Shown in pieces: positions 7,339-62,300 of a stretch of DNA of 64,000 nucleotides (the stretch's first letter is position 1; every line of letters starts with the position of its first letter). Origin of the DNA: Tribonema minus (taxonomy: Eukaryota; Sar; Xanthophyceae; Tribonematales; Tribonemataceae); assembly GCA_017506865.1 (NCBI GenBank), contig JAFCMP010000235.1, positions 434,001-498,000 of the forward strand, read 5' to 3'. Position numbers and translations under genes: made by a program. Under the pieces are notes generated by a model. It was given only the letters and a program-made list of their open reading frames with translations, was not told the DNA's origin and searched no databases.

Positions 7339-8981
7339 CGCGACGCGGTTCCGGGCGCGCAGGCGATGCGCGTGTGGGCTGCTTGCTGCGCGCGGCGGCT
7401 ATGAGGGGGGGTGGGGGTTTGGGGAGGGGAGGGGAGGGGAGTCTGAGCGATGTTGCGCGGTGCTGCAACAGCGCGCCTCGGCGCCGCGTTTTGTGCACCG
7501 CGCCGACTGACCGTGGCTTGCGCGCGCGCGGGGATGGCGGCGGCGCGCGGTCAGGCGCTTGGCGTACACACTGTGCAAGCGAGAATTTGGAGCTGCTGCG
7601 CGTACAGCCACTATGTGGGGGCGGGGGGGGGGGGGGCTGAGCCATGCCAGGAGGCGTGGCAGCAGCGGATCTCGGCACCGCGCTCGACGGACTGCGCTGG
7701 CTGCACACGCGCACGCACGGCGAGCCCGTGTGTGTGGCGACGGCGTTGCCATCGGTCATGTGGGGCGGCGTTCAGCGTACGAACAGCGCTTGAGCGTTGT
7801 TGTTGTGTGTGCGGCGGATATGCGCTGCTGCAGTGCCGTCGTACGCGCCACACGACGTGCACTGCGCCGGCTGGCATTCAACCCGGGGGCGTCGGCGCCA
7901 GCTTTGCGGTAAACCGAGGAACGGAGGCAGTGGCAGCGCGCAGCCGGGCTCGTGCGGCAAACCGATGGCGCATGAGCGCTGCTGCTCTGTGTCGCTGTCG
8001 GGATGTCCAGCACCTTGCATCATGCATGCTGCTGGGCGCAAGACACGGACGGCGCAGTGGCAGCGAGTGCGCAGGCGCAGCGCGGCCGCCGGGCCGCTGC
8101 AAAGTTGAGCGCTGCTGCGCCATCGCGCGCCCCACGGCACGGCACATGGCAAGCGGACTGCGCCACCGTGCGCCGCGCTAAGTGGTCATGTTGCGCGGCT
8201 TCATGCCGTGTCAACTTGCTGAGCACTGTGGTTCACATTTACCGTGCGTGCTTTAGCAGCTGTGCCAACAGGTGTTCTGCGCCCGTGCAGACTGTCTATC
8301 TGCCAGCGAGTAGCAGAATGCAGTGCGTCACTTCCACACTGAGCCCACGAGCTCACTGGTGGCTGGTAGCCATTTCACCCCCTATAAGTCAAAGCGCCCG
8401 CCGGCGCGTCGGTGAGCATATCCTTTTAGCCATAGCTCGCACTCGACATACCGCTGATGGCGACTTTTCGATAGTGCTTATGAGCACCTCGTTGTTGACG
8501 CGTTCCCCAAGCACAAATCACATGGCGATCTGCCGCTACGTCCAGGTGATGTTTGACCTTGTGTCAGCCACGCAGGCAGCGATTAAGCGATGTTCGTCAA
8601 TAACCAACAAATGCATTATTTGATGTCTTCTGTCCAGCATTTTCCTTCTGTTGCTGCTTTCCTTGGGCACTCATTCAGATGGCGCGCTTATTGCGGCAGC
8701 CGGTGCCGACCTCCTCGCCCCCCCACACCAACCCCCCCCCCCCCCCCCACCCCGACAGCACCAACTTTTTAACCCGCTACACCTGCCCGTCGCCACACTG
8801 TTTGGCCATGCCACATGTTTGTAACTCATCACATGCACCCACTTGACGCAGGCATGCACGCGCTTGAACTGCCTGTGCGTGGTCAGACTCGTTCCTAGTG
8901 TGGTGAGTGGCGACGCCGAGTCACTCGCGCCGCCTGAGGTGCTGTCATTCGATCATCGGCACAACAACCTAGCACGACACC
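7339..8981. other. Intergenic region with degenerate copies of the SpeD exon end
   Basis: No gene recognised. It holds two decayed copies of the SpeD final exon (listed separately), G runs near 7404-7440 and 7619-7637, and a C run near 8720-8750. Long frames across 7450-8180 on both strands are GC-driven artefacts. Confidence 0.55.
7448..7512 (+). repeat. Echo copy of SpeD exon 2 tail
   Basis: GTGCTGCAACAGCGCGCCTC and the following bases through CGCCGACTGA repeat the end of the SpeD coding exon (7288-7338), including the stop codon, with a handful of substitutions. A third, poorer copy is at about 7655-7695. They are about 155 and 365 bp downstream of the original. Confidence 0.8.
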
Positions 8982-11900: not shown

Positions 11901-14578
11901 GCAGTGTTTCACACCACTTGACGGTATGACAGCAGTGGCGTACAAAGTTTGACTGAAATAGATGCTGATACCATGTGGTGAATGGTCTGCTCCATCAACT
12001 GTATAATGCTAGTGTACGCAGACGTCTGCAGATGTCTGCTGATGCGTCGATATCACCACGGAGCTCACTGCGGCCAGCCTCCAGTTGTTGCGTACCATAT
12101 CACGCCTCCTCTTTCACCACAATCATGCTGCATTCGTCGTAATGTGCGGTATTCCTCTTTGGTAGCTGCTGACTGCGCAACGGCGCGACTACCGAGTTTA
12201 CTCCAGTCTGCTCACTTCACATTAGCAGCGGGGGACGTCACATAGCTGCGGAGCAGCACCTATCAGCGGCATAAAACGCAACTGTGCTTTGCAGTCACAT
12301 TTATTCTGGCTTTGTCGGTGATTTTTTCAATGACTCTTCAAATCATTCTTTGTGCTTGTCGAAATTGGTCAAAATTGAGCATGCTCTCCAATCATGATGA
12401 CAACAGCATTGGCGATGAGTCATCGCCGATGACCATTGACTGTCGACCGTTGACTCTTACGGAGCAGCGTCGTTCGCATCTCCGTCAAACTGCACACACA
12501 CACCCTGAAGGTGCCCTTCCAGTGCTTGAAGTTGCTTGAAGTTGTAGTCACACTTCAACAAGGTACAGGGTCACTTCATTCACCCATCGTCACAGGAGCC
12601 CCTCCGCTGCTAACGACGTCTTCCACTCATCCATTCACTCGTGCCCACAATCTGAATTCGTCGCAGGCAACCTCCCCTTCAGCTTCAATGAGGCTGCGCT
12701 GGCGGAGCTGTTTGCGCCCCATGGCGAAGTCGTGGCGGCGACGGTCGTGACGGATGACACGGGCCGCTCCAAGGGATTCGGCTTCGTAGAGGTAACCGTG
12801 GCCACACATCTGTAATACTGTTTCGGTGAACAGTGCAGTTGAAGTTGTACCTATTTGCGAGGTCGTGTCGGCGACGGTTGTGACGGACGACAGGGACGTT
12901 CCAAGGGATTCGGCTTTGCAGAGGTGACCGTGGCCACATATCTTAAATGTTTTGGCGAACATTTTATCTAGAGCAGTTGGAGTTGTACCTGTTGGACGGC
13001 CACTGCAATACTGACTCAATTCTCACGCTCCTCAGCCAACTCAGCCAGTTAGAGTCATAGTTTCACCAGCTTTTGATATTCAGTTCTGCAAGAGGCGAGC
13101 GCAGACGTCAACACAACGTGCACACGAGCATACTCGACAGCACACATGGACGTGCGTGCGCGCACCGCCGTCATGTACTCCCAAAGCGCATCACACAGGT
13201 TTGCCTGCACAAGGCAGTAAGACACCGCAGCACTCGCGCCGCCATAGTAACATCAGTGCTCGCGAGTGCGGGTGCTGTGCCGTCGCCGTTTGTCGCGTTG
13301 AGACATGCCAGCACGCTGCATGCAATAACATCTTCCCGGGGCCAGACGTTGTTGAAGTTCATTCCGTAAGGTCCGTCATCGTTCGCGCAGGCCTAGCGAC
13401 GATTCCTGGTTTGCGGGGAGCACCATGCATGCACTTAAGCATTGACGTGGGCGCAGCCACTAAGGGGCGTAGCCTTGAATCCTGCTACAGGGCATCTGCC
13501 AGAAGGTCTTTAGTGTGCGCACCAACCACAGTGCGCCCTACTACCAGGAGGTCGTCTTGGTAGACGGTTCTTCTCAAAGCATAGTCGCTGCTGACAATAT
13601 AAATCGTTGTTAATAATGGTTGTTGTCACAGGCCTGCAGGTTGTCGTTGGCGGTCCGTCCAGTACTCGGTACATACCCCAGCGTTATTGCCGTAACTGTC
13701 CTGTTTGTGACGCGCTTGCGTGCAGGTGGCAGCAGCACCCTCTCTGCCCGCTCGTGATTGAATCATGCTTCACTTCCTACTTGAGAGTGCCCATTGGGCA
13801 TGCGCATCAACTGGTGTTGTCACACCTGCTCCTGTGTGCCGCAGCACCATGTGCCTGTGCTGAGCGCCGCCTTACGTGCCTCGTGTCTATGCTTCTTTTG
13901 CGCCGGCAGATGGGCAAGAAGGCGGAGGGGCAGGCCGCGCTGGCGACATTGCATGGCCACGAGATCAATGGGTCAGTGCTCAGCTTGCGCGCGCTTGCTC
14001 ATACCTTGTCGGTCTGGAACGACCGTGCCTTGACCAGCATTTGCATGCATCTCCTCACCAGAGTTACCTTCAACACTTTTTGCTTTTCGGGACTGGCTAG
14101 AATCGCGCTAGGTGTCCTGTACTACAACAGTTTGGGAAGTCAGTCACAATGGAAGTTATTTTCTTCGCTCAGCACTGACACAGGTATGGGACCAAGGATT
14201 GTATCGTGCGCCCAGGTGTTGTCGATCCAACGCATCTCGGTACCTGTGCGACAGTTGTATCGACAACACCTGGGCGCACAGTATACACAAACAGCATGTG
14301 CGCCAGGAAGTGCACATGCGCCTTGTTGGCCCTCCATATGCTCTGTGTTGGGCGTAAATTGCAAGCAAGTTCAGCAGGATGAACACATGTGAGCCTTTGC
14401 TCTATGTGTAGGTAGCTTGTGTTGATATGCGCATCGACATGGACGCGAAGCCATAGTAATGGTCAATGCTGTGTGTGCGCTTGCAAATCAGAATTCACAC
14501 CTCACTGCCCGTGTATTTTCTGTGTTGCGATGCAGGCGGCCAATCACGGTCCGCGATGGCAACGCTCCGCGGCATTGA
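8982..14578 (+). CDS. Predicted plastid RNA-binding protein: MJ0042-type zinc ribbon plus RRM
   Basis: Eight exons join in phase: 8982-9090, 9410-9579, 10001-10066, 10403-10507, 11167-11278, 12667-12791, 13910-13971 and 14536-14578, giving 263 residues. Residues 1-20 are a signal peptide ending AHAF, then a Ser/Ala/Thr-rich leader typical of a bipartite plastid transit peptide. Residues 101-131 form a zinc ribbon: IKCGRC, then GRRVKCSVCEHAW, with CxxC pairs 103/106 and 126/129, as in the bacterial MJ0042 finger family. Residues 183-259 are an RRM with RNP2 (MFVGNL) and RNP1 (SKGFGFVE), closing with INGRPITV. Introns 1 and 4 start with GC (AG|GCAAGT and AG|GCGAGT). The protein probably binds plastid RNA; its targets are unknown. 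The domain pairing is unusual as far as I know. Confidence 0.85.
10545..10640 (+). repeat. Dispersed ~105-bp repeat, copy 1
   Basis: It lies in intron 4 of the RRM gene, starting about 37 bp after a GC donor. It shares AGTGCCTTCCACCAATAAC and an ATCAAAAGAT core with copies near 18000 and 27190, all on the plus strand. No coding capacity or terminal inverted repeat was seen. It may be a SINE, a MITE-like element or an introner-type insertion. Confidence 0.75.
12856..12991 (+). repeat. Echo copy of RRM exon 6 tail and donor
   Basis: It is a tandem duplicate of about 12724-12851. It covers the second half of the RRM exon (TCGTGTCGGCGACGGTTGTG here), the donor region, and about 60 bp of intron down to GTTGTACCT. 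The copy has lost the reading frame but keeps a GT after GCAGAG. Confidence 0.85.
14207..14278 (+). other. Long hairpin with perfect 20-bp stem
   Basis: TGCGCCCAGGTGTTGTCGAT (14207-14226) is the exact reverse complement of 14259-14278. A 32-nt centre can itself partly pair through CAAC/GTTG, and GTAT flanks extend the fold. It sits in the last intron of the RRM gene. It could be a small-RNA precursor-like hairpin or a compact inverted-repeat element. Confidence 0.8.
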
Positions 14579-15122: not shown

Positions 15123-18100
15123 ATGCAAGCAATCAGCAGTAGACCTGAGATGCTGCGAGGCAGTAGCGCGGAGATGCGAGGCGCACAGCAACAGCTGCAA
15201 CGAAGACGCACTATCGGCCTGGAGACGCTGCAGCGACCTCGGATGACGAAGTGAGACAGAGTCTGTCAGGCAGTGTGCTTTACGCCATGACGCCACATGC
15301 ACATGCATGACGAGTCTCTGGCGCTGTCTGGTCCTTACGCTCTGCAGGGAGGGGCTGGAGGTGTCTGTGCACACGTGCCCGCGGGCCTTACAGAGGGAGC
15401 TGACTCACGTGTTCAGAGGCACGGGAGTGGACCTCACGGGTTGCCTGGCGGTGCCCACCAATCAGAAGGCCGGTACGGACCTGGTCAATATGGGGAGCGA
15501 TGTGGACATCGAGAAGGACAGGCTGCTCAACGTGGTAAGCTGATAGGAAACAGAACTGCAAGAGTGTTCACGACACGAACTGACGCGTGCCGACGCTGCT
15601 CACAGCATTGACAACTGGTGATGATAGTTTCGAGACACATTGCATTTATCACCATGTTGGACGAGAGGTCACCATGCGAGATCCTCCTGCCATGTAGTCG
15701 CACGTGGTCACAGAGTGTGCTTCAGCATCCGGTGATGTTTTCAGGCATGACAACTTTGGTTTGAAGCTCTGCGTTGAGCACTCGCAGGGTGTATCGTTCA
15801 CGGCAGAGCAAGCACTCAATTCGTGCAAGGACTGGCGAGGTGATCGTTCATGTGAGATGGTTCAATGCTCGACATGTAGGCTCCCTCAATTTAGGTCATC
15901 CCAGTTAAGTTTCAGTTGCACAGGCATGCACACTTACACAGTATACCGCTGTACCATTGCCAGCGTGCCGACGCGTGCAGTACCATGCACTGAGAGGCGC
16001 ACTGCTGCTCTTGTCAAGCGCTACCACAGCGAGGCGAGTGTTCATTATGCCTTGTGCCAAAGGCAGAGCACAGAAACGGCCTTTCGGGAGGGTTACAAAA
16101 ACTATCAGTGGAACATTGAGAACAGCGCACTGCGGCCCAGTGTTACCAATTTTGTGCCCCTGGGCTGGCATTGAGCGCCTCACAGATACTTAGGCTGGTG
16201 AAGCCTGCCATAAAACCACGCAGACGTCTAGGCTTATTTCCTTCGGCGCTGGCTCCTTCAGCTAACCAACCGCTTCGTGCAGCCCAAGCACGGCAACGAC
16301 TGCGTACGTCAGCCAGCCACAACGCAACAAGTCTTGCCCGGCCGCTGCCATGCCATCAGCATGGCAGGGGCAAATCCTCTGGTCGTCCAGTGCATGACAG
16401 CGACACTAATGCAATGTTTGTGGTGGGATTCTGTTTCTGAAACAACAGAAGGATCCGGCACTCACTGTGCCTCACCGCATGGACCGATGCTCTTGTGGCC
16501 GCTGCGGCAGCACCAACAGAAATATCTGGCACTCACTGTGCCCACCGCATGGACCGATGCCTCTGTGACCGCTGCTGCACTGCCGCAGTTTGTGGATTTT
16601 GCGGCGTGGCTGTGCAGCACCTTGAGAGAGCAGGGCTTCTGGGCGGACTACATCGACCCCTGCTCAGGGCTGCCGGTGAGCGCGCGGGCTGTTCACAAAA
16701 GTATTGAAGTTTTAATATGGAGGTATCAAATTGAAACCCTCAATGTTGAAGATTCACTGGGCTACGTTGACCCTGCTCAGGGCTGCCAGTGAGCGCGGGG
16801 CCTTTTTTGATAGTTTGAAGTGTCAATGTTGAAGTATCATAGGTGAGCAGGCTTCTGGGCGGACTACATCGACCCCTGCTCGGGGTCGTCGGTGAGCGCT
16901 GGGGTAAACCGGTGAAGTACCACTGTTGAAGTAACGGTTGCAGAGTTTGAAGTCTCAGTGCTGAAGTAACTGAGAGTCATTCTGTAGCACTGGGCTACGG
17001 CGTCCGTGCTCGGGGCTGCCGGTGAGCGCTAGGGTGTGTGAAAAGCTTTGAAGTATCAATGTTGAAGTATCACTGCACTCGGGGCTGCTCGTGAGCGCAC
17101 ACTGCTTCGCGCTTTCCTGTTGGAGGCAGCACTGTTGAAGCGGCAGAATTGACCTGTGCTTAGGACTGCCGGTGAGCGCTGGAGTTTTTCCCATTGTTGA
17201 AGAGTCAATGTTGAATTATCATCGGTGAGCATGGGTTTGTTTGCACATGTGTTGAAATATCGGTGTTGAAGTATCAATGCAGTATCACTGGGCTACGTTG
17301 ACCCAGCTCAGGGCTGCTGGTGAGCGCTTACACAGCTGGGGCTTTGTTGTGGATGTGGGAGTTATGACGTAGCACTGCTGATGTAGCACGGTGTGCCGTC
17401 TGTCAGTACATTACATGCGGCGATACTCAAGGGTTGCAGAGCGGGCACGGCGACAGCATTCCTGTTGACTCACGGCCGAGGCGGCAATGCTGACCAGTGG
17501 CGAAATTTGCCCCCCAAGTTCACAGCCGTGCATACACTTAGCCGCAGCCACCACAGCAAGGCGTGCAGAAGTTGGTTTCAGTCGTGGCAGACCGACTGGG
17601 CAGTGCGCATGGCGGCACAAAAACTCAGCGTCGACGGCGCGCTGGCAGAGAGCAGCGCTGCGTATGCCACTCTGTGTGAGGCGGGCAGAAGGGTACCACT
17701 AGACTAGTGCACCTGGCGACTGGAAGCACATTGTCGGCAGTGCACTGGAAGTGCGCGACTAGGCTCGCATGCTCCAAGCAGGAAAGCATACCGGTGCCGG
17801 CGGTTCGCTGGCGGACAGCGATGAGTCAAATCCTCTACTTTGAAAAAGTATGTTGGATGTCAACTTCAAATGATGACGCCCCCATCCTTCCGCGTCGTCG
17901 CCTCGACCCTGCTACCTTGCGCAGATGCTGTCCGGCGGGAACAAGGTGTACAGCGAGGTGGAGGGCATGCAGCTGCTGCTACAGTACCAGGCAAGCAGTG
18001 ATAATAATGGAAACGGATCAAAAGATCGTAGAGCGCTAGGTGACGAGGAGTGCATAGCCCCAAGTGCCTTCCACCAATAACTGCGGTTGCCGCTGCTGCA

Positions 18101-19024
18101 GCAGTTGGTCACGAGTGAAACAGTGCCACCATTATAATGTAGAAGTACTTATTTGTATGACTACCACAACTGGAGTTGTATGCATGTAGTCAGGGTGCAC
18201 GTCACGCAACTGCTGTCGCGTGCATATGGTCAGGGTTTGACTTAAGGGTGGGTCAGGGCACAGCATGCCTGAGAGCTGCCGTGTGCAGCTGCAGTACCAC
18301 GTAAAAAAACACCCATGTTAGACCGCTGACCCGACCGCAGGAGGTGGTGTCACCGTGCGCATGGTCAGATTTCGGGTTGAAGTTGGGGTTAGGGCACGGC
18401 GCGACTGGAAGCTGCAATGTGCTCACTCGTCGTAGCTGTCAGTACAGTTGTGACAACAGCTCCATGCACGTGACCAAAGAGGAGCGAGAGTGGGCACATG
18501 CTTCGTGGGCTGTGAAGGCCGCTTCACGGGGATTGTCGCGCTCGGCCCCTGAGTCGAGTGCCAAGTGCTGGTGGTCTGCTGTGAAATGCTGGCACTGCGC
18601 ACGCGGATGCCGGCGGGTTGCCGTGTGGGACACCCCCCCCTTTGTCTGCTAGACATCTGTTGCGAAGTTCGCAAATTTGAACGCGGAATCATGTTCAGGG
18701 TGCTGGTGAATCCAAAAGTGGGGCTTGCACCGTGCGTACCCCCCTGCTCCTCACACCTCTTCACAAATCCAGAGCACAAGAAATCGAATGCGTGCGTGTT
18801 TGGATGGATTGCGCATGCCAACGACCCCCCTGTTACCCCCCCCCCCCCTCCCCGTCCGTATGCAGGTCATGAATGCGGGGATGTGCAGGGTGCTCCTGCA
18901 CCCCACGTGGGGCTCACACGTGTACCCCGCATCGTGCTTCACCACGGCGCCGATAGAAGCCGTAGAGCGCGTGCTCGAGGGCAAGTACCACGACGAGTTT
19001 GCGGAGCAAGAAACTGCCACGTAA
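15123..19024 (+). CDS. MMADHC: MMADHC (CblD) homologue, cobalamin trafficking protein
   Basis: The human family member works with CblC to route cobalamin to methionine synthase and methylmalonyl-CoA mutase. Five exons join in phase: 15123-15250, 15348-15534, 16589-16675, 17925-17990 and 18866-19024, about 208 residues. Conserved blocks follow the human order: LEVSVHTCP (human VECAIQTCP), DIEKDRLLNV, LREQGFWADYIDPCSGLP (human LRAEGYWADFIDPSSGL), then GMCRVLLHPTWGSHV (human GCCKVIRHSLWGTHV). Cys163 aligns with human Cys261, reported to ligate cobalt in the CblC-CblD complex. The Arg-rich, acid-poor N terminus could be a mitochondrial leader, but exon 1 rests only on phase and donor consensus; a second ATG is at 15150. 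Intron 4 has a GC donor (CAG|GCAAGC). Intron 3 holds a large array of exon-tail copies. Confidence 0.9.
16745..17330 (+). repeat. Array of MMADHC exon 3 tail and donor echoes
   Basis: The exon 3 end (16629-16690, ...CGACCCCTGCTCAGGGCTGC, then CGGTGAGCGC) is repeated in decayed form at about 16756-16800, 16848-16900, 16987-17033, 17077-17100, 17150-17182 and 17287-17327. Each copy retains GTGAGCG or a close variant. Copies are separated by GTTGAAGTATCAATG-like spacers, giving a loose period near 100 bp. Exon and donor are thus copied together. Confidence 0.88.
17995..18112 (+). repeat. Dispersed ~105-bp repeat, copy 2
   Basis: It begins within about a dozen bases of the GC donor of MMADHC intron 4. 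It shares ATCAAAAGATCGTAGAGC and AAGTGCCTTCCACCAATAAC with copy 1, and CGCCGCTGCTGCAGC-like 3' sequence with copy 3. Confidence 0.78.
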
Positions 19025-28521: not shown

Positions 28522-29464
28522 CGCTGCGTGTGTTTGTTGACGGCTTCCGACTCTTGAGGTTGGGGAGTCACCGGTATGAAGTCCCAGGTTCAAGTCTCCA
28601 CTAACCTTGACTTCAGGACGGCCCCCCCCAAAAACCGCCCGCCAAGCCGTAACTGTTCCCCGTCCTCAGCTTGCGCTTGTCCCCAAAGGCGCACAAGAGG
28701 CTCAGGGACATGGCACTGCTTGGTGCCACGACGGGCGCGAAGTTGTGTGCATCCCGCCACTAGTGATATCGATGCAACTCTGCAACGCGACGATTAGCAC
28801 GCACACATCACGACGAGCACCGGCAACCACAGTTGACAGTTGTGCGGTGAGCCAGAGAGCAAGGCGAAGCAGGCACGCATTGGAGAAGGGGAGACCTCAA
28901 AGAAAAGTGTCCCAAACAATTCTGGTCACTATACATTTAGAGGCCACAGTAGCAATGCGGACGTGGCATCACCAGCCACACTGATCGCAGCTCCGCAAAA
29001 GCAGTGCTCATGAGACAATTGTGCTGCGCACGCGACCGATGATTACAAAGGTCTCACGGCAGACTGCTGCACCGTTGCCGCTGGGGCTACTGCCGGCACC
29101 AAGTGACAGCGCGCTGCGACTACGGCTGTGCTAAACTACAACTACAGCGGCGCAGTGGCGCTGCCGGCCTGACACCAATAGGCATCGCTGCTAGTGCTGC
29201 GCCAGGCGTGTCACATGCTTCAGCAGCATGGTCTAAGGGACTCGAGCGTGGTCGTGGTGCGGCGATATCGCGTGCGTCGCAAGCGGCGCTGCCGCTGCTG
29301 CAGCCGCTGCAGGGCAACAAGGGGTCTGTACACATGCAGCGGCGGCGGCGCTGGCGGTGGCTGTGAACTGATGCGGCAGCCGCGGCAGTGCAAGTGTCTT
29401 CGAAACGGTATTGATTGCCAAGGATTTGCTGAGCGCTGATTCAGTGGGGAAGCGCCGCGCCCCC
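28522..29464. other. No gene recognised
   Basis: This is the 5' flank of the F-box gene. Open frames on the plus strand (28607-28984) have no recognisable protein features. A GCTGCTGCAG-rich patch lies at 29290-29320. Confidence 0.45.
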
Positions 29465-46300: not shown

Positions 46301-46591
46301 AAACAAGACGGAAGCGCAGCGGGACGCAGGAGCTACCTCTGCAACAACGTTGTGCGCTCGCCCCCAGCGACGCAAACAAGACGGAAGCGCAGCGGGACGC
46401 AGGCACTCAGAAATTGCCGCTGCGAGCCAGTACCTACATACACCCTCGCCCTCACCTGGCTCCTTTCTCTTCTTCATGAACAAGCCGCCGGTGTCCAGGG
46501 GGACCCCCCCATCCCGAGCAATGCCGCTGCTGGCAGGGGCCTGGGCGGCAACTGGTGCCTGCACAGTGCCGCTTTCCTTGTTACCGTCCAT
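40340..46591 (-). CDS. Unidentified multi-exon protein-coding gene
   Basis: Exons supported by phase and consensus: 46456-46591 (start ATG; MDGNKESGTVQAPVAAQAP, ending FMKKRKEP), 45911-46001 (PRVLMRTSRQAFDATSNAE), 44729-44858 (CSLNSACVRPGAFGVVKSIP), 43446-43691 (KLSHLTHGQKLSSVALAAAA and FTVRCVIDADVTL), 42111-42282 (KRRRETWSKTRGWPHGARV and DPDLALMRKYVESDLVLHP) and 40340-40520 (LTPDGAPAGAPPEVWQEFA, ending RIKLGKGQEERMIKL). The last four join cleanly. Exons 2 and 3 do not match in phase, so a small exon between them is missing from my model. About 280-300 residues in all. No signal peptide or membrane segment is evident. I recognise no family. Several junctions have echo copies on one or both sides. 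It is divergent from the PAPS transporter gene. Confidence 0.68.
40560..41625. repeat. Irregular minisatellite in last intron of the unidentified gene
   Basis: Many variants of GCAGCGAGCAGCGGCGGGCG and GCGCAGATGGCAGTGA recur through about 1 kb. A partial copy of the last exon's head (GTCAGCTGCACCTCCCTGGC at about 40786-40805) is embedded, upstream on the minus strand of the real exon at 40520. Confidence 0.8.
41790..42045 (-). repeat. Three echo copies of exon 42111-42282 tail
   Basis: The exon end (GACATGCAGCTCACGCTCAC, then GAG|gtgcgg) recurs at about 42003-42036, 41927-41960 and more weakly at 41795-41830. Each is followed by a variant of GGAGAGG. They lie downstream of the exon on the minus strand. 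Confidence 0.87.
43120..43400 (-). repeat. Two echo copies of exon 43446-43691 tail
   Basis: The tail coding LDRLHRALTACGGSSAATAA, then AGTIGG and donor gtgag, recurs at 43268-43400, still open and coding VIDVDVTLAAADLDRLHRA, and shorter at 43120-43213. Both retain donor gtgag. A copy of the exon's head (LSHLTHGQKLSSAALAAAA) lies upstream at about 43868-43935. Confidence 0.88.
44290..44690 (-). repeat. Echo copies of exon 44729-44858 tail
   Basis: The end of the exon, coding GCNGTVSVCTASER before the donor, recurs as decayed copies near 44620-44680, 44450-44500 and 44300-44365. The last codes GCSGAVSSVAASER and keeps a gtgagt. Copies of the region just before this exon (GCCGCTGCTGCACGCCTCAG) lie upstream at about 45057-45085 and 45408-45435. 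Confidence 0.82.
46257..46402 (+). repeat. Perfect 73-bp tandem duplication
   Basis: The unit 46257-46329, beginning GAGCTACCTCTGCAACAACG, is repeated without a visible change at 46330-46402. It lies in intron 1 of the unidentified gene. Perfect identity implies a recent event. Confidence 0.93.
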
Positions 46592-50200: not shown

Positions 50201-53200
50201 CGCGACGTGTCGTATGTCCGCATCCCCCTACTGATCGTGCGCATGCGCTGCGCTGCTGCGCAGGCGGCGGACGACGAGGTACTGCCGCCGCGCAGCGAGG
50301 TCATCAAGAAGCTGGCGGGGCTCGGGCTGGGCCTCAATGTGACCTTTGTCCTGTGGGGCGTGCTGCAGGTGCGGGAGAGTCACTGCCTACTGTTACGCTG
50401 GTATGCACGCGCACTCTGAATACCTACCCCAAACGCATACCTACGTGATCGAGGACTGCGCGCGCATGGGGCTCAGCTCATGGCACATGCGGCATAGCAT
50501 GTACATGGCATTCGCCAATGCCAGTCGGGCACATGGCGACGCCTTCCTCGTAGTATAAGTACGCTTCAATCGGTGCCGCCTCCGGCTTGCATCGCTCGGA
50601 ATCTCACCTCACGCCACTTTGCTTCCGCGGTGCGGGCGGAAGCGCTCGCGGGCCGATGGTCGTTGCAATCGCTGCGTGGAGCAGCGCACGCGACGGTGAC
50701 GGGCGCGCTGATGGCGCAGACCTCTCGCTCTCGTGTTGAGCAGTGCTGCGTGCCACCGCACATGCAGAGCTGCTGCGGTGCTGTGCTGAAGCGGCGCGCC
50801 GCGCGCGTGGCGCCGCCCGCGCTCTTGCGCGTGCACGAGACTGGGGGCGCAGGCAAATCGGCGCCGGCCATGCGCTCTTCGCAAGCGCCCTCCCTCATCG
50901 TGTCTGCCTTCCTGAGTGGCGCGAGTCGTGTGATCGCACCTTGATTTCAACTGCAACCCCAACGGCGTGCGTCTGCACAGCATGGTCGCCTGCGCCCGCG
51001 CCAGGCAGCATCTGGTTTCAGTGCTGCTCGAACTCGTTTCGCTGTGTACGTTCCAGTGGGCCCGTAGGACAGGCTTGGTGAGCGCTGATGCAGTTCCCCC
51101 TGCCGCTGCGCTGCCGTGGTCCCCCCTTTCAGGAGCGCATCTTGAAGATGGAGTACGGCCAGGGGGACTTCTTCACGTACAGGCAAGCGGCGCGATTGTG
51201 TACTTCAAGTTGAAGTAGCACGCACCGAACCTCACAGCGCTGGTGAAGGGCTCTGTAGCAGTCACTGCTGCCACTGGTCGAGGGTAGAGAACAAACGCAG
51301 TGAGCCGTGAGCCACCAGAGCATGGGCGCGCAGCGTGCGCTCTCACTCCACTCGCAGTCAGAGCATGTCAACGCTTAATGCGCGGCATCCAGCCACTCAG
51401 GATGAGGATTAAGCTAGCGTGTAGGGCTTCGGGTAAGCGTCGCACACCAGGCTGGTGTTGACATTGACTCCTGGCCCGCAGTTCATGCGGCGGCGGCGGC
51501 GGCGGCGACGAGGTCGATGCCGCTCAATGGGGCGCCTGCGGAGCGGCCGTACGCGCGTTCTGAGTGTTTCCAGCGGCAACGGCCCCACTCGTAGCCCTGC
51601 GTCTGTCACATGCGTGCTGAGCACTTCTTCTCATTTGCCGCTGCCGCTGCTGCTACCGCAAGGCGTTCGCCTGCCAGTAGTCTTGTGTGTGTGTGCTGAG
51701 CACTGCTTCCACTGCTCCGCTTTCGCCACTAGCTATGGCTTGCTTTTTTTCATGTCCGCAGCAACACACCGCGTCCACCCGGCCCCGTGCGTACCCTGAC
51801 AAATTTCTTTTTCGTGCTCAGCACTGCCTCTTCTCTGCCGCCGCTGCCGCTGCCGCAACTACGGCCCAGTGGTCACCCTGCGACATTCTGTGCCTGCGCT
51901 CGCACTTGCACTTCATTTTACACCGTACCCCTCTCAGCCTGTGCGTGGCCTCACACTTCTCGCGTGGGGGTGCTGAGCACTGCTTATTCGCTCCGCCGCC
52001 GCTGCCGTCACCGCCGCAGCTATGGCCTGGTGGTCACCAGTTGCGCGCTGGCACCGCTCTCACCCCGTTTCACAGCGTACTCCGTGCATAGCCTCACACC
52101 TCTCGCATTTGTGCTGAGCATCGCTTATTCACTCCGCCGCTGCCGCAGCTACGGCCTGGTGTTCACGAACCGCGCGCTGGGGCTGCTCTTCTTGGGCGGC
52201 ATGCTGTACTGAGCGCTCGTTGCCTCGCACCTGTCGCATGTGGGTTTTGAGCACTGCTTCTTCGCTCTGCTGCCGCTGCCGCAGCTACGGCCTGGTGTTC
52301 ACAAACCGCGCGCTGGGGCTGCTCTTCTCGGGCGGCATGCTGTACTACACGCGGCCGACGTGGTCCAAGGCGCTCGCGTACGAGTACTCGCTGCCGTCCG
52401 TGACCAACATGCTGAGCTCGTGGTGCCAGTACGAGGCGCTCAAGTTTGTCACGTTTCCCACGCAGGTGAGCCGGACGTAAGCTCACCTTCTGATGATTAG
52501 AAGTAAAAGTTTCTACATCTCGCTGCCTTCAGTCTTCAACGTGCTGAGCTCGTGGCGCCAATACGAGGCGCTTAAACTCCAAACCCAAGTGAGTCACGGG
52601 GAGCGTGGATCAGTTCAAGTTTTTATTGAAGTCTGAGTACTCACTGCCCGTCCGTCACCAACATGCTGAGCTCGTGGTGCCATTATGAGGCGCTCAAGTT
52701 TGTCACGTTCCCCACTCAGGTGAAATATTTGTTTGAGCTGAAGTTGGTGTTACTTTGAATCTCTGTACATGCTCGCTGCCGTCCGTTACCAACATGCTGA
52801 GCTCGTGGTGCCAGTACGATGCGCACAAACCCGTCACGTACTTCAAGTTGATTGCGCGTGCGCACCGGGGTAGGCAGCACATCAGGTGACGTTGAAAAGC
52901 TTTGTTGCAAAGCGAAGCCCCACAAGCTGGTGCATCAGTTGAATTTGAGGTTCCAGTGCCCTTCATTGCCGCCACCTTTCTGGCATTCGGTAGCCAATCG
53001 TCAGGTCCTCGATTATGCTTTGCCATTCATGCTCAACTCGTGGTGCGCCGCGCGCTGTCCCGGCTCTGCAGGTTGTCAGCAAAGCGTCAGTTGAAGCCGC
53101 TGTTCTCACACCCCTGTAGGTCGCCACCAGAGTTGTTGCAGTCGGGTGCGGTTGTAACGCGCGGAGTTGCGCATGACACCCAAACTGAATTCACGGCGCA

Positions 53201-56200
53201 CCGTGTGCCGCGCGCCGGTCGCCGCAGGTTTTGACCAGCAAGGCGTTCAAGAATGGCTGAATTTGAAGTTGAATTTGAAGTTGTGGTGCCCTTCCATGTG
53301 CTATTTGTGGCAATCAGTAGCCAGTTGTCAGGGCGTCAAAATCCATGTTGTGCGCCGCGCGCTGTGCCGTTTCTGCAGGTTCTGAGCAAGGCGTTCAAGA
53401 TTGCACCGATCATGCTCATGGGGCGCATGCTGGGGAACAAGTCGTACCCGCTGTACGACTACTGCGTGGCGGGGACCATTGGGCTCGGTACGCAATGCGC
53501 GCTTATGATTATGTACTTGTGTATGCGCAACTCATGTCGTACGGCCACTTTGTGCGGATCAGAAAGAGGCGCTCCGCAAATACCCATAGTCAAATCGTGA
53601 TTTGAGCCGGACAATCGGGCTCGGTCCTGCTTGGTATGCGATGCGCGCTTTCAATTTCTATGTACTTCTGTGCGCGCACCTCATTTGCCTACAGTCCCCT
53701 CATGTAGGTCAGCAGGAGGCGCACCACAAATTGCAGGATTTGAGCCGGACCATTGGGTGACTTCTGAAACTCGCAACTCGTGGCCCAGGCCGCTCATGCG
53801 GCTCGACAACGGGTATTACACAATTGCTGGGTTGAACAAGGCACTGTGTTGTCTCACCCCAACTGTAGTGGCTCAGTTTTGCAGTAATCAGCTGACTGCG
53901 TAACCCCAGCAGAGGGCAGAGGACTTGTGCCGCACTCACACAGCGCATTCGCCTCTTTCCAGTCAGATTGAAGTTGAAGTTTTTGCGGGGACAGCGCACC
54001 CTTGCACTAGCATGCCAGGAGTGTATGTCTCGCGCATGCACGCGTACGCTGTGCCCACCCTGATGTGCCTCGAGGCGGCGCGGCATGCATGCGTTCTGTG
54101 TTGCACCCTTTGCGTTCTGCGTTGCACCCTTACCGTCGCCGCAAACAGAAAGCGCACCTGCCTTGAGCCAACGTGCCAAGGCCGCCTGTCTCACATGTGT
54201 CAGGGCTAGGCTGCCGCGTGCTCCCCAAGCGTGGCGCTGCTATGTGCTCAGATCCTGTTGTGCCCCAAAGGTGGCGCGGCATGTGCTCCATGTTTTACCC
54301 AGCCCTGACGCCAAGAACTATCTTAAAAAATTGCTGCGGACAAAAAGCACACCTGCCTTGAGCCGACGTGCCAAGGCGCCTGTCTCACATGTGTCAGGGC
54401 TAGGCTACCGCGTCCCCCCAGGTGTGGCGCTGCTACGTGCCCGGGTTTCCCTCATCCTGTTGTGCCCCAAAGGCGGCGCGGCATTCGTTATGTTTTGACT
54501 CAAAGCCCTAACGCCAAATATTCATGCAGAGGCAGCGCGCACCTCGAACTGGCGTGCTAGAGCCATCTCTGTCACACGTGTGTGCATCCACATCAACATG
54601 AGCCTTCAGGTGTAGCGCTGTTTGCGACGAGCGTGCTCTTTGAACTGCTGTAGCGTGCTAGGGCCGTCTGTCTCAAATGTGCGTACATCCACATTGACAT
54701 GCGCATTTTAGGTGTGGCGCTGTTTGCGACGATTGTGCTCTTTGAACAACTGTAGCGTGCTAGGGCCGTCTGTCTCACATATCAACATGCGCCTTCAGGT
54801 GTGGCGCTGTTTGTAACGAGCAGCAAAGTAGTTTGCTACATAGGACCGTCTGTCTAACATGTGTATATGTCCATATCAACATCACGTGCCTTCAGGTGTG
54901 GCGCTGTTCGTAACGAGCAGCGAGGGGCTACGCCTGGGGGCGGACAGCTTTGGCCAGCAGGGGGCCGTGGGGTGCGGCATCATGCTGCTGGGACTCTACT
55001 TGGTGTTCGACTCTTTCACCAGCCAGGTAAGGAGTCGACTCGCTGACTAACCGGGTAGACTGTGCGTGGTCGCACTCACAGTGTGACTCATTTCACCAGC
55101 CAGATGGGGAGTTGACTTGGTGTTTGCCTTGATCCACTGGTCAGGCAGACTTTACTTGGAGTGTGAATCGTTCACCAGCCAGGTAGTCATGTACCTGCCA
55201 CATGCGGCAAATGATTTTGCAGCATGCTTTGTGCATCTGTTGCGCGGTCTGTCCTGGCTCAACCATGATCTGTCATGACTCATATGGCAGAACATCCCCG
55301 AATTAGACGCACTGCAAGTACGTTTGCAAGCGCTGAGAATGACCGGTGGGGCGCAGACTCTGCAACTTGTTGTGTATGCTCATGTCGTGAATGTGCGCAT
55401 CGCTGTTGCCCGTATGTGTAGTCATGTACTTCAACTCGAGTATCAAAGGTACGTAGGTATGGAGAATGCCATCGGGGGCTCGCCACGACGCCCGCGAATC
55501 GCCGCAACTGCCTGTTTGTACACTGCAAATCTGCGGGTGGGAGCTTCTGTTCGACTGCTATCAGTATGCACTGACACCTGCGGGGTACCTCCACAGTTGG
55601 GTCAACCCACACCCTAAAGCTGCCCCGCGCTCCTGCCGCTGACGTCCGCTGACCGCGCCGCCGCTGCTGCGGCCTTTGTGCCCCCCCCCCCCTCCCCCCC
55701 TCCCCCTTGCTAGTTCACTGGCTTGTCTGCCTGCCGCAGCTGTGTGTGTTTTTACTCGTGCTGGGCGTTGCGAAGCAAGCAGTGTAGCGCGCGCCGCTGC
55801 ACACCTCTGGGCTCTTTGCTAACTTTACATTCCAAGACCTGTTCCCCTTCTGCTCCCTCCCAGGCTCTTTTCATGAACCTCATATTCTAATGCCTGCCCC
55901 CCCCCCCCCCCTTCCCCCCCCCCCCCTCTGTTCCCCTGCGTGCAGTGGCAAAGCCGCATGTTCACCAAGCACCGCGACCTGAGCCCGATCCAGATGATGT
56001 TTGTCATGAACGCGTTCAGCACCGTGTTCAGCCTCGTGACGCTCGTGCACGCGGGGGAGCTCGTGCCGTTCTTCAACTTTGTGGGCGCGCACCCGGAGAT
56101 ACACCTCCACTTCATCGCGTTCAGCCTGCTGTCCACCGTCGGTGAGTGGTGACGTGCTGCTGAATGAAGTTCTCCTTGAAGCGGTAGGTGTTGACCCGCC

Positions 56201-58229
56201 TGGTGACGGGCGTCACGTGTCCGTTGGTGATAATGGTGCATGTGGGCAAGCTCGTGCCGTTCTTTGACGTCGTGGGCCCTAATTGAATAACTTGCAGATC
56301 CACCTCTACTTCATCGCCTTCAGCCTGCTGTCGACTGTCGGTGAGTGGTGACGTGCCGCTAGTTGAAGAATACTCTGTGCGCTCACACTAGTTGATTAAC
56401 ATGGTGAGGCGCGCACCCGGAGATCCACCTCCAGTTCATCGCCTTCAGCCTGCTCTCCACCGTCGGTGAGTGGTGACGTGCCGCTACTTGAATGTTGTGT
56501 GCGCCCACCCTAGTTGAAGAACATCGCGGCGCGTGCACCCGGAGATTTACCTCCACTTCGCCGCCCTCAGCCTGTTGTCCACCGGCGATGGTGTTTGCCA
56601 TCAACATGGAGGGCCCATTGCTTCGTGACTACATCTGGAGCACTAATGGTACCTCCTCTGCTGCGTGCCGCCGCAATGTAGGTGCTCCAGCATTCTCAAT
56701 ATTGCTCTCGAGCATTGATGACACTTCCTCCTGCTGCGTGCCGCCGCGACACAGGCCAGCTGCTCAGCTTCCACACTATCTGCAGCTTCGGCGTGGTGGT
56801 GTTTGCCATCATCGCAGTATGGCCCATTGCTCCAAGCATCCTATTTACCACTTGAGCACTGATTACATAGACAACACTTCCTCCTGCTGCGTGCCGCCGC
56901 GACGCAGGCCAGCTGCTCATCTTCCACACTATCTGCAGCTTCGGCGTGGTGTTTGCCATTATCACACTATGGCCCATTGCTGCAAGCATCCTCGTCATTG
57001 CTCTCAAGTACCGATTGCACTTCCCATTGCTGCCAGTCGCCGCTGCCGCTGCTGACACGCACGCCAATTGCTCTTCTTCCACGCTATCCACAGCTTTGGC
57101 GCAGAGGTGTATGCCATCGTCACAGTAAAGCCCACTGCTTCGCGCATCGTATTCACCACTTGAGCACAATTTTTTTTATTACACTTCCTCCTGCTGCGTG
57201 CCGCCGCAATGCAGGCCAGCTGCTGATCTTCCACACGATCCGCAGCTTCGGCGCGGTGGTGTTTGCCATCATCATGACGGTGCGCATCGCGCTGAGCATC
57301 CTCGTGTCGTGCCTCATGTACGACCACGCCATCACCGAGATGGGCTCGCTGGGCATGATCCTCGTCTTCTGCGCCGTGTCGTACCGCATACAGGTACGTA
57401 CGTACTTGTATCGGATACCTACATACCTTAAGAAGTACATACCTACCTGAGATGGGCTCGCTGGGCATGATCCACGACTTCTGCGCCGTGTCGTACCGCG
57501 TACAGTTATGTACGTAGGGTACACACATGTTGAAAACCCACCCACTTCAAGGAATACCTACCTACCTGAGTACGGGTTACCTTATTTTGGTAAGACGGGG
57601 GGAGGGGGGGTACTATACAAAGTAGGTAGACCCTCTTGAACAGGGTACCCCTGTCTTAGCATCCTTCCAAGCTTCATGTTGACAAGGTTCCCCCGTCCTC
57701 TACTAATTTGCGCCCGAGAGCAGGCGGCGACAGCCGATCTGCTGGTCAATATATACTTGTAAGTATACAAGTATAGTTCACTACGTAATGCTTCGCCAGC
57801 GTGGCGCTGCACGACTGCTGCAAAGTAATCGTATTTGCCGGAAGGAGACAGGACCGGCGCACTGCGCAGTGTCCAAACGTGCGCGCGAGCCGCGCCTGTT
57901 TTTATGCAGTGCAACGTTCAAAGGCTGCATGGGTCCAAACTATGAAAAAGGTTCCAGCCGCAGCGTGTTCATGCACGCAAAATTGCCACGACCTGGAATA
58001 GTTTTTTGCAGGCCCATCAGAGGTTGCCCCCCTTTCACCCCCCCGGAATCTTCTTCTGGCAGTGCAAACTCTAGCACCTCAAAGGAGGCCCTGCCCCCCC
58101 CCCCCCCCCCCCGCCTGTCTCCTCTCGCAGCGCAAAATGCAGGGGCAGCGCCTGGTCAAGTGGCGCGGCATCGACGACTCCAAGGCGCCTGAGGTCATAC
58201 ACGAATGGCACGAGCACTTGGACTTCTAG
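47235..58229 (+). CDS. PAPST1: PAPS (3'-phosphoadenosine 5'-phosphosulfate) transporter, SLC35B2 type
   Basis: It is predicted to carry the universal sulfate donor into the Golgi for polysaccharide and protein sulfation. Ten exons join in phase: 47235-47527, 48725-48749, 50264-50368, 51133-51182, 52285-52465, 53379-53487, 54896-55026, 55946-56141, 57215-57393 and 58131-58229, giving 455 residues against 432 in human. An extra N-terminal membrane segment ([20 protein letters not shown]) precedes the transporter core. Family blocks in order: [104 protein letters not shown] and a hydrophilic tail ending WHEHLDF. Exon 2 is a 25-bp microexon. Intron 4 uses a GC donor (AG|GCAAGC). Nearly every intron carries echo copies of the adjoining exon boundary. 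Family call is strong; location is inferred from homologues. Confidence 0.93.
49435..50160 (+). repeat. Echo copies of PAPST exon 3 head
   Basis: The acceptor and first bases of exon 3 (GCGCAGGCGGCGGACGACGA) recur in decayed form at about 50112-50158 (GCGCAGGCGGCGGATGATGA), 49975-49995 and 49447-49485, each within a longer similar block containing GTGCTCATC and CGCTGCGCTGC. Confidence 0.78.
51640..52212 (+). repeat. Echo copies of PAPST exon 5 head
   Basis: The copy at 52149-52209 matches the first about 60 bases of exon 5 (52285-52345) with about two changes before diverging. Older copies start near 52020 and 51859, and a trace near 51640. Each is preceded by GTGCTGAGCACTGC and a CCGCTGCCGCAG acceptor-like stretch, so intron end and exon head were copied together. 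Identity falls with distance from the exon. Confidence 0.9.
52500..52870 (+). repeat. Echo copies of PAPST exon 5 tail
   Basis: Three copies of the exon end (AACATGCTGAGCTCGTGGTG, then TACGAGGCGCTCAAGTTTGT) lie at about 52525-52595, 52637-52723 and 52775-52840. The middle copy keeps CACTCAG|gtgaaa. Confidence 0.9.
53040..53255 (+). repeat. Echo copies of PAPST exon 6 head
   Basis: Decayed copies of the acceptor and start of exon 6 (CTGCAGGTTCTGAGCAAGGC) lie at about 53050-53090 and 53205-53252. After the exon, partial copies of its tail (ATTGGGCTCGGT) occur near 53610 and 53748. Confidence 0.78.
54190..54850 (+). repeat. Echo array of PAPST exon 7 head
   Basis: At least five decayed copies of the acceptor and start of exon 7 (CCTTCAGGTGTGGCGCTGTT) occur at about 54220, 54418, 54605, 54708 and 54795. 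They are linked by repeated CTAGGGCCGTCTGTCTCACA and CCACATCAACATG blocks. The period is about 100-190 bp. Downstream, the exon tail TTTCACCAGCCAG recurs near 55090 and 55172. Confidence 0.88.
56290..56590 (+). repeat. Three echo copies of PAPST exon 8 tail and donor
   Basis: The exon end (CTTCATCGCGTTCAGCCTGC to GTCG|gtgagtggtgacgtg) recurs at about 56297-56355, 56405-56480 and 56525-56590. The first has its own acceptor-like TTGCAG, an open frame and donor gtgagt, with the same entry and exit phases (0 and 1) as exon 8. It could in principle be spliced as an alternative exon. Confidence 0.9.
56640..57180 (+). repeat. Echo copies of PAPST exon 9 head
   Basis: Copies begin near 56690, 56752, 56907 and 57040. 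Each carries TTCCTCCTGCTGCGTGCCGC before an acceptor-like AG, then a version of GCCAGCTGCTCATCTTCCAC and GGTGTTTGCCAT. A copy of the exon tail lies downstream at about 57448-57512. Confidence 0.9.
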
Positions 58230-59350: not shown

Positions 59351-62300
59351 TCACCGCTCCTTGGGGCCGTCCCCCGCAGCAGCGGCGCCGCCTCCGGCGT
59401 CGGCGGTTTCGCCCCTCTCCGTGAGCGACGGCTTGCGGCGATCGGCGCATGCGACGACGGTCGCGCCGCCGCCATCGCGCTTGTACTCGTTGAGCGTAAC
59501 GATAGCGGCGGCGTGCGCCGCTGCTGCCGCGGGCTTGTGCGGGAGCGCGCAGCAGCCGGCGTCGCCCTTGCCGCAGGCCACCGCCCCCTTGGCGTCGTGC
59601 GGCGGCGGTGCAGCGGCTGGCTTCTTCATGAGGCTGCGGTGGCGGCGGCGGCAATTGGCGGCGGCGGCGGCGGCGGTGAAGGAGGCGTGAAGCGAGCTAG
59701 TGCTGTCACGGTCTCTGCGCCACTGCGCGAGCATCAGAGATTGAGAGTTTGCGATTTGCGTGCTTTCGTTCACTGCATCTGCGCTTTTGAGAGCGCGTGC
59801 GTTGACCGAACAGGCGGCGTCGGTCCTGGCGCATGTAAGCAGTGCAATGCCGCTGTGCAGCGCATTAAGGTGCTCCATGAGGACGCACCGGCGGAGCTAC
59901 GTGATGGACTCGTTGATCGTTCGCGCACACAGTTGCGCTGAAGTAATATGCATTCAAGACACTTTGAAGTGTTCACAAGATGCAGGTAGATTGTGGTAGC
60001 GAGCTTGGCATCCACCATCTTTTGTGCCCTTTTTTTTTTTTTTTTTTTGGCCCTAAGCAATAAATAATCAACAACACGTACTGGTTCTGCGCAAACTATA
60101 TCTGCATGCTGTGCTGCCTTGCAGATACAGTCATGCTCTGGTGCTGCCAGCAGACTGCGCAGTGCGGACGTGCCTCATTGAACCTTAGACTCGCAAGTGC
60201 TTCTCATTGAGTTCTCAAGAATGCCTATGTATGACGTGCAGACATACAGTATGCTGCATCTACAAGCCCTTCAGCAAGCGCTCAACTGCTAACTCTGAGA
60301 GCAATAGAACCAATGCTGAGATTGACGCCCCGACATTGGATTGCGGGGGCCCATACCAGCGACCCGACCTTGCTCCCATGAACGAACTCACATGTCGTAT
60401 GTATGTCGAGCATACCTACGGTACACTGCATCTGCAAGCCCTGTTTCAGCAGAGGCTAAACAAATCACCGTGAGAGCTTGAGGTCACAATGGGTGCTCGA
60501 CATTGGAACAGTGAGAGGCCCAGGCCAGTGACTTGACTGTACTGTTCATTAATTATTGCTCAGGGCGCGAAAAAGCCCAGATGAACGGCATCTGACTTGA
60601 CGCTTGCTGTACGGAATCTACACGTCGTGTGACGGTCTGAAAGTGTATCAACGACAGCCACTCAAACGCCGCCGCCGCCAAATGGCATGACTTGACTGTA
60701 CTTGCACGACTGAACTCACATGTTGTCCATCATCCAGAACTGCAGCGCGTTGAGTATCCATGGGCAGCTGCGGCGCGGACGCAGCAGCAGCGCGGCGCAA
60801 AACGGCGCATTGCAGTCAGAAGCGTTGTGTGAGCGCGCGTGTGCTGCAATGTGGCATGGCACTGACAGTGCAGTTGTGTTTCCATCGATGCCTGCACACA
60901 TGCTTGCTGATTGGGAGCATTTCGGGTTGAGCATCGCCACTTGTTGCTGTGTATGCTACAGTGCTCCTTCAAAGCATGAGGGTTGAGCGAAATTGCGCGG
61001 GTGGCAGTGTGCAAGATGCAGAAAGAAAGCCCCCAAGAATGGTTGTTGCTGAGTCGCGGCGTCAGTCGCAACAGCAGCGCACAGACATGATGAAGACGCC
61101 AGAAGTACAGCAGCGGCAGAGGCAGCATCATGGTGTAGAGTTACAGTCATGGGCTGCCATCATAGGCACGATCTGGTGAACACGACCCCTGATAGCACAA
61201 GCCTTGAGTCAGCAGGTGGCTTCATGCGTGCTTCGTCCACAAGAGATGTGCTGATGATATGGCAAGGCGAACACACTGTGACAGCACCGCTCCCTGCCTC
61301 ACTGCAGCAACGCTCACGCGATCGTCGCGACACAGACGAACACATCACTCACGCGGCGGCGCAGTCAAGACGAACGCGCGCACGCAATCATTGCGATGCG
61401 AACGAACACATCACTCAAGCGGCGGCATTGATGAGATGGCAAGACAAACGTGCAAACGACAGCGCTCAGCCAATCGCGGCGCGGCATTAACAACTGAGGT
61501 GAATGTTCAAGTCTAAGTTCAACATAGAATACTTTAAGACCTGAGGTTAGAAAAAGTGTCCACACTCAGTTTCGTAATTTCCAGGCGTGTCTGACACACC
61601 CATAGAGTCTAACATCACAAAATATAACGATGGTGCAAAAGTGCAGCGCTCACATGATCATGACGATGGTGAGCTCGGCCTCCGGGAACTCGCGCACGGG
61701 CGCGAAGAGCACCGCGCTCACGTCGCTGAGCACTGCATCGCCCGCCAGCACCACCAGGGTGATGACCGTCTTGACCGCGACCACACTGCACGCGCAGACG
61801 AACGCGAACATCAACATGGTGAAGAGCACGGCGCTGACGTTGCTGAGCACTGCGTCCCCCGCCAGCACCACCCGGGTGATGACCGTCTTGACCGCGACCA
61901 CGCTGCACGCGCAGATCAACAATGACGGCAACATGGTGGTTGACTTACTTGCAACAACCTGCTGAGAATGGCCGTTGCATACAAGTGATGAGGGCTGATA
62001 CTGGCGCCAAACACTAGGATATGAGCGAGGCCCATATTGCACAATTTTATTGTCATGACATACAGTGTTTTGATCGTCGCGAGCAGCGAGTGCTTGCGTC
62101 CACAGAGGTGCTGAGATGGGGTCAGAGTAAGGGCTAGGTGAGCGCTGGTACCGGACGAATAACAACGGCAACATGATCATCCAAGGGGCGGTAGGTTCCC
62201 TTTATTGCAGGGTGTCTCTAGACCAGCAGGGGTTCGGTTTCGGCGCTAGCCCTGACCCTAGCAGCGTGCACGTGGTGTATGACGCTGCCGCGCTCTATAC

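What the first reader, a model, noticed from the sequence alone, without database searches (positions are those of the whole stretch)
7448..61930. Splice-junction echoes: introns contain tandem decayed copies of the exon boundary next to them
In seven genes, the intron before an exon holds copies of acceptor plus exon head, and the intron after it holds copies of exon tail plus donor. Copies number one to six, recur about every 100-190 bp, and keep GT or AG at the right place while the frame decays. The functional exon is always the outermost copy on the coding side. This looks like intron growth by repeated local duplication across splice sites, a process I do not know as a described class. 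It could create cryptic splice sites or alternative exons, and it would confuse gene finders and assemblers.
Basis: partly seen in the sequence, partly recalled or inferred. Interest (0 to 1): 0.92.

Follow-up and report, generated by a model that had tools for sequence, protein, structure and literature searches.

The report
Introns grown from copied splice junctions
In this stretch of a probably algal genome, several genes have introns built in good part from worn tandem copies of their own exon edges, which suggests that introns can lengthen by repeated local duplication while the protein stays intact because splicing keeps using the outermost copy.

Summary
In 20 introns of seven gene models, 14 of 40 exon-edge segments match their own intron strongly; introns of other genes give 0 of 648 and the wrong-side control 0 of 22. 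A looser search finds 44 echoes at 18 of 48 junctions. They are uneven: 12 of the 14 strong cases lie in two genes, and half of the introns have none. Echoes are direct, local, decayed, and lie on the intron side. GT and AG are kept about as often as the rest of the copy. Best reading: serial small tandem duplications hit gene edges; those inside exons are purged, those crossing a junction survive because the outermost site stays in use, and introns grow. A simulation gives the same anchoring if introns began near 300 bp. It does not explain why local repeats cover 30% of intron bases but 8.5% of the unannotated rest. Single boundary-crossing duplications are in print; I found no report of serial arrays as intron material in ten searches of an open-licence library. 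No RNA, relative or genome was available.

The parts
50264..57393 (+). SLC35B-like (UAA family) transporter gene, seven exons modelled: 50264-50368, 51133-51182, 52285-52465, 53379-53487, 54896-55026, 55946-56141, 57215-57393
   Evidence: spliced protein hits UAA 2.5e-41, residues 26-314; model
49937..50287 (+). copies of acceptor of exon 1 (50264)
51613..52346 (+). ladder of copies of acceptor plus exon head, exon 3 (52285); identity 0.91, 0.81, 0.78, 0.84, 0.76 from near to far
52382..52839 (+). copies of exon tail plus donor, exon 3 (52465)
52937..53403 (+). copies of acceptor plus exon head, exon 4 (53379)
53483..53731 (+). copy across donor of exon 4 (53487); only 5 exon bases in the aligned pair, weak
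54145..54921 (+). copies of acceptor plus exon head, exon 5 (54896)
54992..55185 (+). copies of exon tail plus donor, exon 5 (55026)
56045..56590 (+). copies of exon tail plus donor, exon 6 (56141)
56585..57305 (+). copies of acceptor plus exon head, exon 7 (57215); here a farther copy is the more similar one
57337..57570 (+). copy of exon tail plus donor, exon 7 (57393)
15348..19021 (+). MMADHC-like gene, exons 15348-15534, 16589-16675, 17925-17990, 18866-19021
   Evidence: Pfam MMADHC 8.4e-27; aligned to PDB 5a4r residues 3-150
16628..17328 (+). copies of exon tail plus donor (16675), six by eye, five by alignment cut-off
12724..12993 (+). zinc-ribbon/RRM gene, one copy of exon tail plus donor (12791), about 133 bp unit
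7283..7536 (+). AdoMet decarboxylase: copy of the end of the coding sequence with stop codon; not a splice junction
40340..44858 (-). gene R, exons 44858-44729, 43691-43446, 42282-42111, 40520-40340; open frame across the joins, no Pfam hit
44850..45507 (-). copies of acceptor region of gene R exon 1 (44858)
44291..44775 (-). copies of exon tail plus donor (44729)
43625..43941 (-). copy of acceptor plus exon head (43691)
43099..43568 (-). copies of exon tail plus donor (43446)
41790..42137 (-). copies of exon tail plus donor (42111)
40480..41619 (-). copy of acceptor plus exon head (40520) near 40801, within a low-complexity CTGC-rich intron
20661..20945 (-). probable donor copy in the F-box gene, judged by eye
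26610..27035 (-). probable donor copies (..CTCCCG|GTATGTA), gene without family hit, judged by eye
23157..23695 (-). 179-bp unit, three copies, possible donor array; functional exon not established
61704..61938 (-). 117-bp unit, two copies in one open frame, weak STIMATE match below the Pfam cut-off; acceptor copy or coding duplication, unresolved

Best explanation
Introns of some genes here lengthened by repeated small tandem duplications (aligned offsets mostly about 70-280 bp). A duplication inside an exon breaks the protein and is lost. One that crosses a donor or acceptor leaves a complete junction at the outer edge plus a copy on the intron side; splicing keeps using the outermost donor and acceptor, as expected if exons are recognised as units (exon definition), so the protein is unchanged. 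The inner copy drifts and can be duplicated again. After several rounds the intron is in good part a mosaic of worn copies of its own edges, donor copies first and acceptor copies last. Shown here: the repeats, their orientation, place and decay, and intact spliced models. Inferred: the order of events, neutrality of the copies, use of the outer sites, and exon definition.
For: Own-intron matches 14 of 40 against 0 of 648 and 0 of 22. Local direct hits 73, local inverted 3, all three self-palindromes; no pair with both copies at least 20 bp inside one curated exon. Repeat families at curated genes: 19 of 23 touch a coding edge, one of them by only 5 bp. Nearest copy more like the functional one than the mean of the others in 9 of 11 families, Wilcoxon p = 0.03; 34 of 49 copy pairs fall off with distance. 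Functional-to-echo identity 0.845, echo-to-echo 0.768 over 38 pairs, as if the functional copy alone is constrained; 16 of 40 echoes frameshifted, 4 with a stop. Random duplication with purging of exonic hits gives an anchored fraction of 0.82 from a 300-bp start; observed within introns 15 of 19.
Against: Local repeats cover 29.6% of intron bases but 8.5% of the unannotated rest and hit 1 of 390 segments in 0-6 and 28-34 kb; an unbiased process should mark all non-coding DNA alike, and better detection of exon-anchored copies is unlikely to cover the whole gap. Strong echoes are concentrated in two of seven genes. Two families (SLC35B exon 7 acceptor, exon 6 donor) and part of the MMADHC array do not follow nearest-is-closest. 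The starting intron length is free in the simulation: 500 bp gives 0.51 and 700 bp 0.32. No RNA evidence.
Confidence: 0.7

Rival explanations
1. Junction-targeted duplication: transcription or splicing (for example R-loops or replication-transcription conflict at exon-intron borders) makes these borders hot spots of tandem duplication.
For: Repeats are concentrated in introns against the rest (29.6% and 8.5%); 19 of 23 families at curated genes touch a coding edge.
Against: The junction has no clearly preferred place in the repeat (KS p = 0.10, n = 18); one case is a stop-codon end; chance growth from short introns gives the same anchoring; many junctions have no echo (30 of 48).
Confidence: 0.17
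2. The copies are functional: alternative or backup splice sites, or recursive splicing steps, kept by selection.
For: Donor positions +3 to +8 are 103 of 111 identical, above the exon part at 0.83.
Against: GT and AG themselves are 36 of 42 and 35 of 38, near the rest; frameshifts in 16 of 40; constraint on the functional copy alone and alignment edges can give the donor excess.
Confidence: 0.06
3. Introner-like or other dispersed elements carry the splice sites and insert into introns.
For: A dispersed element of about 110 bp does occur in some introns.
Against: Echoes match only their own exon: maximum 28 in 648 cross-gene comparisons.
Confidence: 0.03
4. Assembly or sequencing artefact that stacked repeated reads.
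For: One repeat outside the finding (46254-46403) is 98.7% identical.
Against: Echoes differ from the functional copy by 5-28% and often by frameshifts, beyond what such errors give.
Confidence: 0.02

Closest known systems
Tandem duplication across an intron-exon boundary in a potato RdRp gene (PMC4974935, abstract and passages seen)
   Same: A tandem duplicate that crosses an existing intron-exon boundary and copies the splicing signals of the parent.
   Different: One event in one gene that made a new intron using a cryptic donor; here many events in several genes, the old intron kept and lengthened.
Internal gene duplication, Gao and Lynch 2009 PNAS (not held; seen only as cited)
   Same: Tandem duplication of parts of genes, including exon-intron segments.
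   Different: As far as the citing passages tell, about whole segments and new introns; serial decayed copies anchored at one junction are not mentioned there.
[quoted passage not shown]
   Same: Tandem duplication creates paired splice sites and added intron sequence.
   Different: There an exonic AGGT supplies both new splice sites; here existing junctions are copied and the outer ones stay in use.
Novel intron positions in Drosophila by intron sliding or tandem duplication (PMC2891723, abstract)
   Same: Duplication of exonic sequence followed by intronisation of one copy.
   Different: Concerns new intron positions, not growth of old introns.

Membership tests
Internal gene duplication (tandem, within a gene) | Direct tandem copies of a gene segment within the gene | tested here: met
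   73 local direct hits against 3 inverted; families at gene edges
Intron gain by tandem duplication of AGGT | A new intron where there was none | not testable with these tools
   no relative or outgroup was available
Intron gain by tandem duplication of AGGT | Duplicated exonic AGGT supplies both splice sites | tested here: not met
   in the anchored pairs that span a splice junction one copy lies on the functional junction and includes intron bases
Introner elements | The same intron sequence in many genes | tested here: not met
   0 of 648 cross-gene comparisons above 28; only this window was searched
Minisatellite array | Regular unit, highly similar copies | tested here: not met
   copies 0.72-0.95 identical to the functional one, spacing irregular
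Duplicated or mutually exclusive exons | Whole exon copy with both splice sites and open frame | tested here: not met
   copies hold one exon edge; 16 of 40 frameshifted; searched around curated junctions only

The most novel reading that the evidence does not exclude
In this lineage exon-intron borders are themselves targets of a recurrent tandem-duplication process coupled to transcription or splicing, and this is a main source of intron length; exon definition shields the protein, so each intron keeps a readable record of past duplications of its own edges.
Probability: 0.17. Interest if true: 0.85.

Novelty: new variant of a known kind. Interest (0 to 1): 0.6.

Why it matters
Where intron sequence comes from is an old question, since most introns have no traceable source. 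Here the source is readable: the intron's own edges. The layout also predicts something about splicing: choosing the nearest donor-acceptor pair across the intron (intron definition) would pick inner copies and break the protein, so such arrays should be tolerated mainly where exons are recognised as units. The copies could also mislead gene finders and RNA mapping.

Tried and rejected
Dispersed elements as the source: no match above 28 in 648 cross-gene comparisons. Extra conservation of GT/AG: 36 of 42 donor bases and 35 of 38 acceptor bases, against 0.83 and 0.81 in the exon part. Donor positions +3 to +8 are higher (103 of 111); I ascribe this to constraint on the functional copy and to alignment edges, which is not separated from selection. 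A breakpoint motif: TTGAAG lies within 15 bp of 26 of 280 repeat edges against 12 expected (3 of 500 shifts as high), GTTGAAGT 7 against 4.0 (93 of 500); weak and confounded because the motif is itself common in the introns.

Limits of the tests. The gene set was not random: I read SLC35B and gene R partly because repeats lay there. The coding scan was seeded with two SLC35B exon stretches, and some of its 27 segments are themselves echoes (for example 56408-56464), so its edge test (20 of 54 in repeats against 8.6, 0 of 1240 shifts) is not independent evidence. The echo search looked on the intron side only, except for the wrong-side control and the same-exon check. One search also lists trivial self-overlaps at distances 21 and 60, which I left out; one search masks them. 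One of the 18 echo junctions (MMADHC exon 4 acceptor) is weak. Outside the curated genes one search lists 18 of 41 repeat families; four of these look like exon-edge copies by eye (20661, 23157, 26610, 61704), the other 14 I did not tie to an exon edge or did not follow.

Related sequences: one scan of viral contigs with part of the transporter found no relative; Rfam at gathering score found nothing in the window. Haptophyte and pelagophyte genome papers were searched for words on introns and repeats (passages only); nothing on junction copies was among the passages shown.

Full report
What is there. The window is eukaryotic in character, 54-67% G+C by 4-kb block, and no genome is held for it. 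A codon-based scan, seeded with two exon stretches of the transporter, gave 27 exon-like segments and more at a lower cut-off. From these, from splice consensus and from reading the sequence I built seven gene models: an SLC35B-like transporter, an MMADHC-like protein, a zinc-ribbon/RRM protein, AdoMet decarboxylase, a NAC protein, and two without a Pfam hit that keep an open frame across the joins (an SMR-like gene, the name being my recall, and gene R). Spliced proteins hit UAA 2.5e-41, MMADHC 8.4e-27, RRM_1 3.7e-18, Zn_ribbon_4 5.2e-09, NAC 7.2e-18 and AdoMet_dc 2e-12; R and the SMR-like protein hit nothing. The MMADHC model aligns to PDB 5a4r from residue 3 to 150, across its joins. Three of the 20 introns begin with GC.

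Are the echoes real? 60 bp of each exon edge was aligned to its own intron: 14 of 40 reach 33 or more (maximum 110). Against introns of other genes 0 of 648 exceed 28; against the wrong neighbouring intron 0 of 22 exceed 22. Ten of 20 introns have at least one; the five below 700 bp have none, nor have five of the 15 longer ones. The cases are uneven: 7 in SLC35B, 5 in gene R, 1 each in MMADHC and ZnRRM, none in NAC, SMR and AdoMetDC. A looser search gives 44 echoes at 18 of 48 junctions. Repeats cover 16 of 48 junctions against 7.0 by circular shift (1 of 1240 as high); 14 of these 16 are in SLC35B and R. In the four most covered introns repeats make up 0.92, 0.76, 0.74 and 0.64 of the length. 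By eye, similar donor copies occur in the F-box gene and in a neighbouring gene on the minus strand.

Anatomy. The repeats are direct and local: 73 hits against 3 inverted ones at the same setting, the 3 being self-palindromes; no pair has both copies inside one curated exon. In the five introns with strong or moderate echoes of both edges the donor copies come first. The ladder before SLC35B exon 3 reads 0.91, 0.81, 0.78, 0.84, 0.76 from near to far. The MMADHC donor has six copies by eye.

How it decays. Codon positions 1, 2 and 3 are 0.861, 0.883 and 0.798 identical; intron bases +9 to +31 of donor copies 0.73, exon bases 0.83. Functional-to-echo identity is 0.845 and echo-to-echo 0.768 over 38 pairs. 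This is what one constrained and one free copy would give. Sixteen of 40 echoes have a frameshift, 4 a stop. GT and AG are kept in 36 of 42 and 35 of 38 bases, so no special retention is shown, although donor positions +3 to +8 are 103 of 111. Farther copies are less like the functional one in 34 of 49 unequal copy pairs; the nearest is above the mean of the rest in 9 of 11 families (p = 0.03). Exceptions are the acceptor of SLC35B exon 7 and the donor of exon 6, and two MMADHC copies that are 93% like each other over 43 bp, which point to duplications of more than one unit or inside the array.

Why at the edges? A simulation placed tandem duplications (unit sizes 71-241) at random over a short intron with 160-bp exon flanks, refusing those inside exons, until the intron reached 1 kb. 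Repeat families touching a coding edge made up 1.00, 0.95, 0.82, 0.51 and 0.32 for starting lengths 100, 200, 300, 500 and 700. Observed within introns: 15 of 19; with gene flanks 19 of 23, one of them by 5 bp only. The junction's place in the repeat does not differ significantly from uniform (KS p = 0.10, n = 18). Anchoring therefore needs no targeting if introns started near 300 bp, a length that I chose to fit. What it leaves open is the contrast between compartments: 29.6% of intron bases but 8.5% of the unannotated rest are in local repeats, and 1 of 390 segments in 0-6 and 28-34 kb. Detection favours exon-anchored copies, since one partner changes slowly, but I judge that this does not give the whole contrast. 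Transposon turnover between genes or a real excess in transcribed DNA are the candidates; neither was tested.

Mechanism. Shown: local direct repeats at gene edges, copies on the intron side, decay of the copies. Supported by homology for SLC35B and MMADHC: the outer copy belongs to the protein. Inferred: several rounds per intron, neutrality of inner copies, and exon definition as the reason why the outermost sites win. This last step is established splicing theory applied here, not tested.

Known or new. A boundary-crossing tandem duplication is in print for one potato gene (PMC4974935, abstract and passages); tandem duplication as a route to new introns is reviewed in PMC3443670 (passages) and proposed for Drosophila in PMC2891723 (abstract). 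Ten searches found no account of serial junction copies as bulk intron material; the library holds open-licence papers only, and two likely sources are not held. The organism is not identified; a red-lineage alga such as a haptophyte is a guess from base composition, a plastid-type leader on AdoMetDC (recalled motif) and CCCTAA-type repeats, which PMC11347835 reports at Phaeocystis chromosome ends (passages). GC donors are also reported from Emiliania huxleyi, there at 56% of curated junctions (PMC4028052, passages), much above the 3 of 20 here.

Noticed in passing
10552-10635 (+), 18007-18115 (+), 27195-27303 (+), 4013-3894 (-): Dispersed element of about 110 bp, 69-83% identical to the 18007 copy. 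Three of four lie in sense orientation in introns, starting 45, 17 and 57 bases after the donor (ZnRRM intron 2, MMADHC intron 3, NAC intron 1); the first two introns have GC donors. Possibly a SINE or introner-like element.
   Followed up: partly
29458-30811 / 30954-32306: Large tandem duplication, offset about 1.5 kb, 84-91% identical, in a stretch almost free of small repeats.
   Followed up: no
whole window: GTTGAAGT/ACTTCAAC is strongly over-represented (30 against about 1 expected); 19 of the 30 lie in introns of the curated genes. Role unknown.
   Followed up: partly
35154-35179 and 62544-62574: Interstitial telomere-like repeats (TAGGGT, GGGTTA).
   Followed up: no
3508-3592 / 42644-42732 and 36456-36595 / 60688-60538: Two further dispersed repeat pairs, 79% and 83% identical, the second inverted; the first lies in introns of NAC and gene R.
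   Followed up: no
46254-46403: Very recent 73-bp tandem duplication, 98.7% identical, not tied to an exon.
   Followed up: no
14206-14279: Palindromic inverted repeat in the zinc-ribbon/RRM gene region.
   Followed up: no
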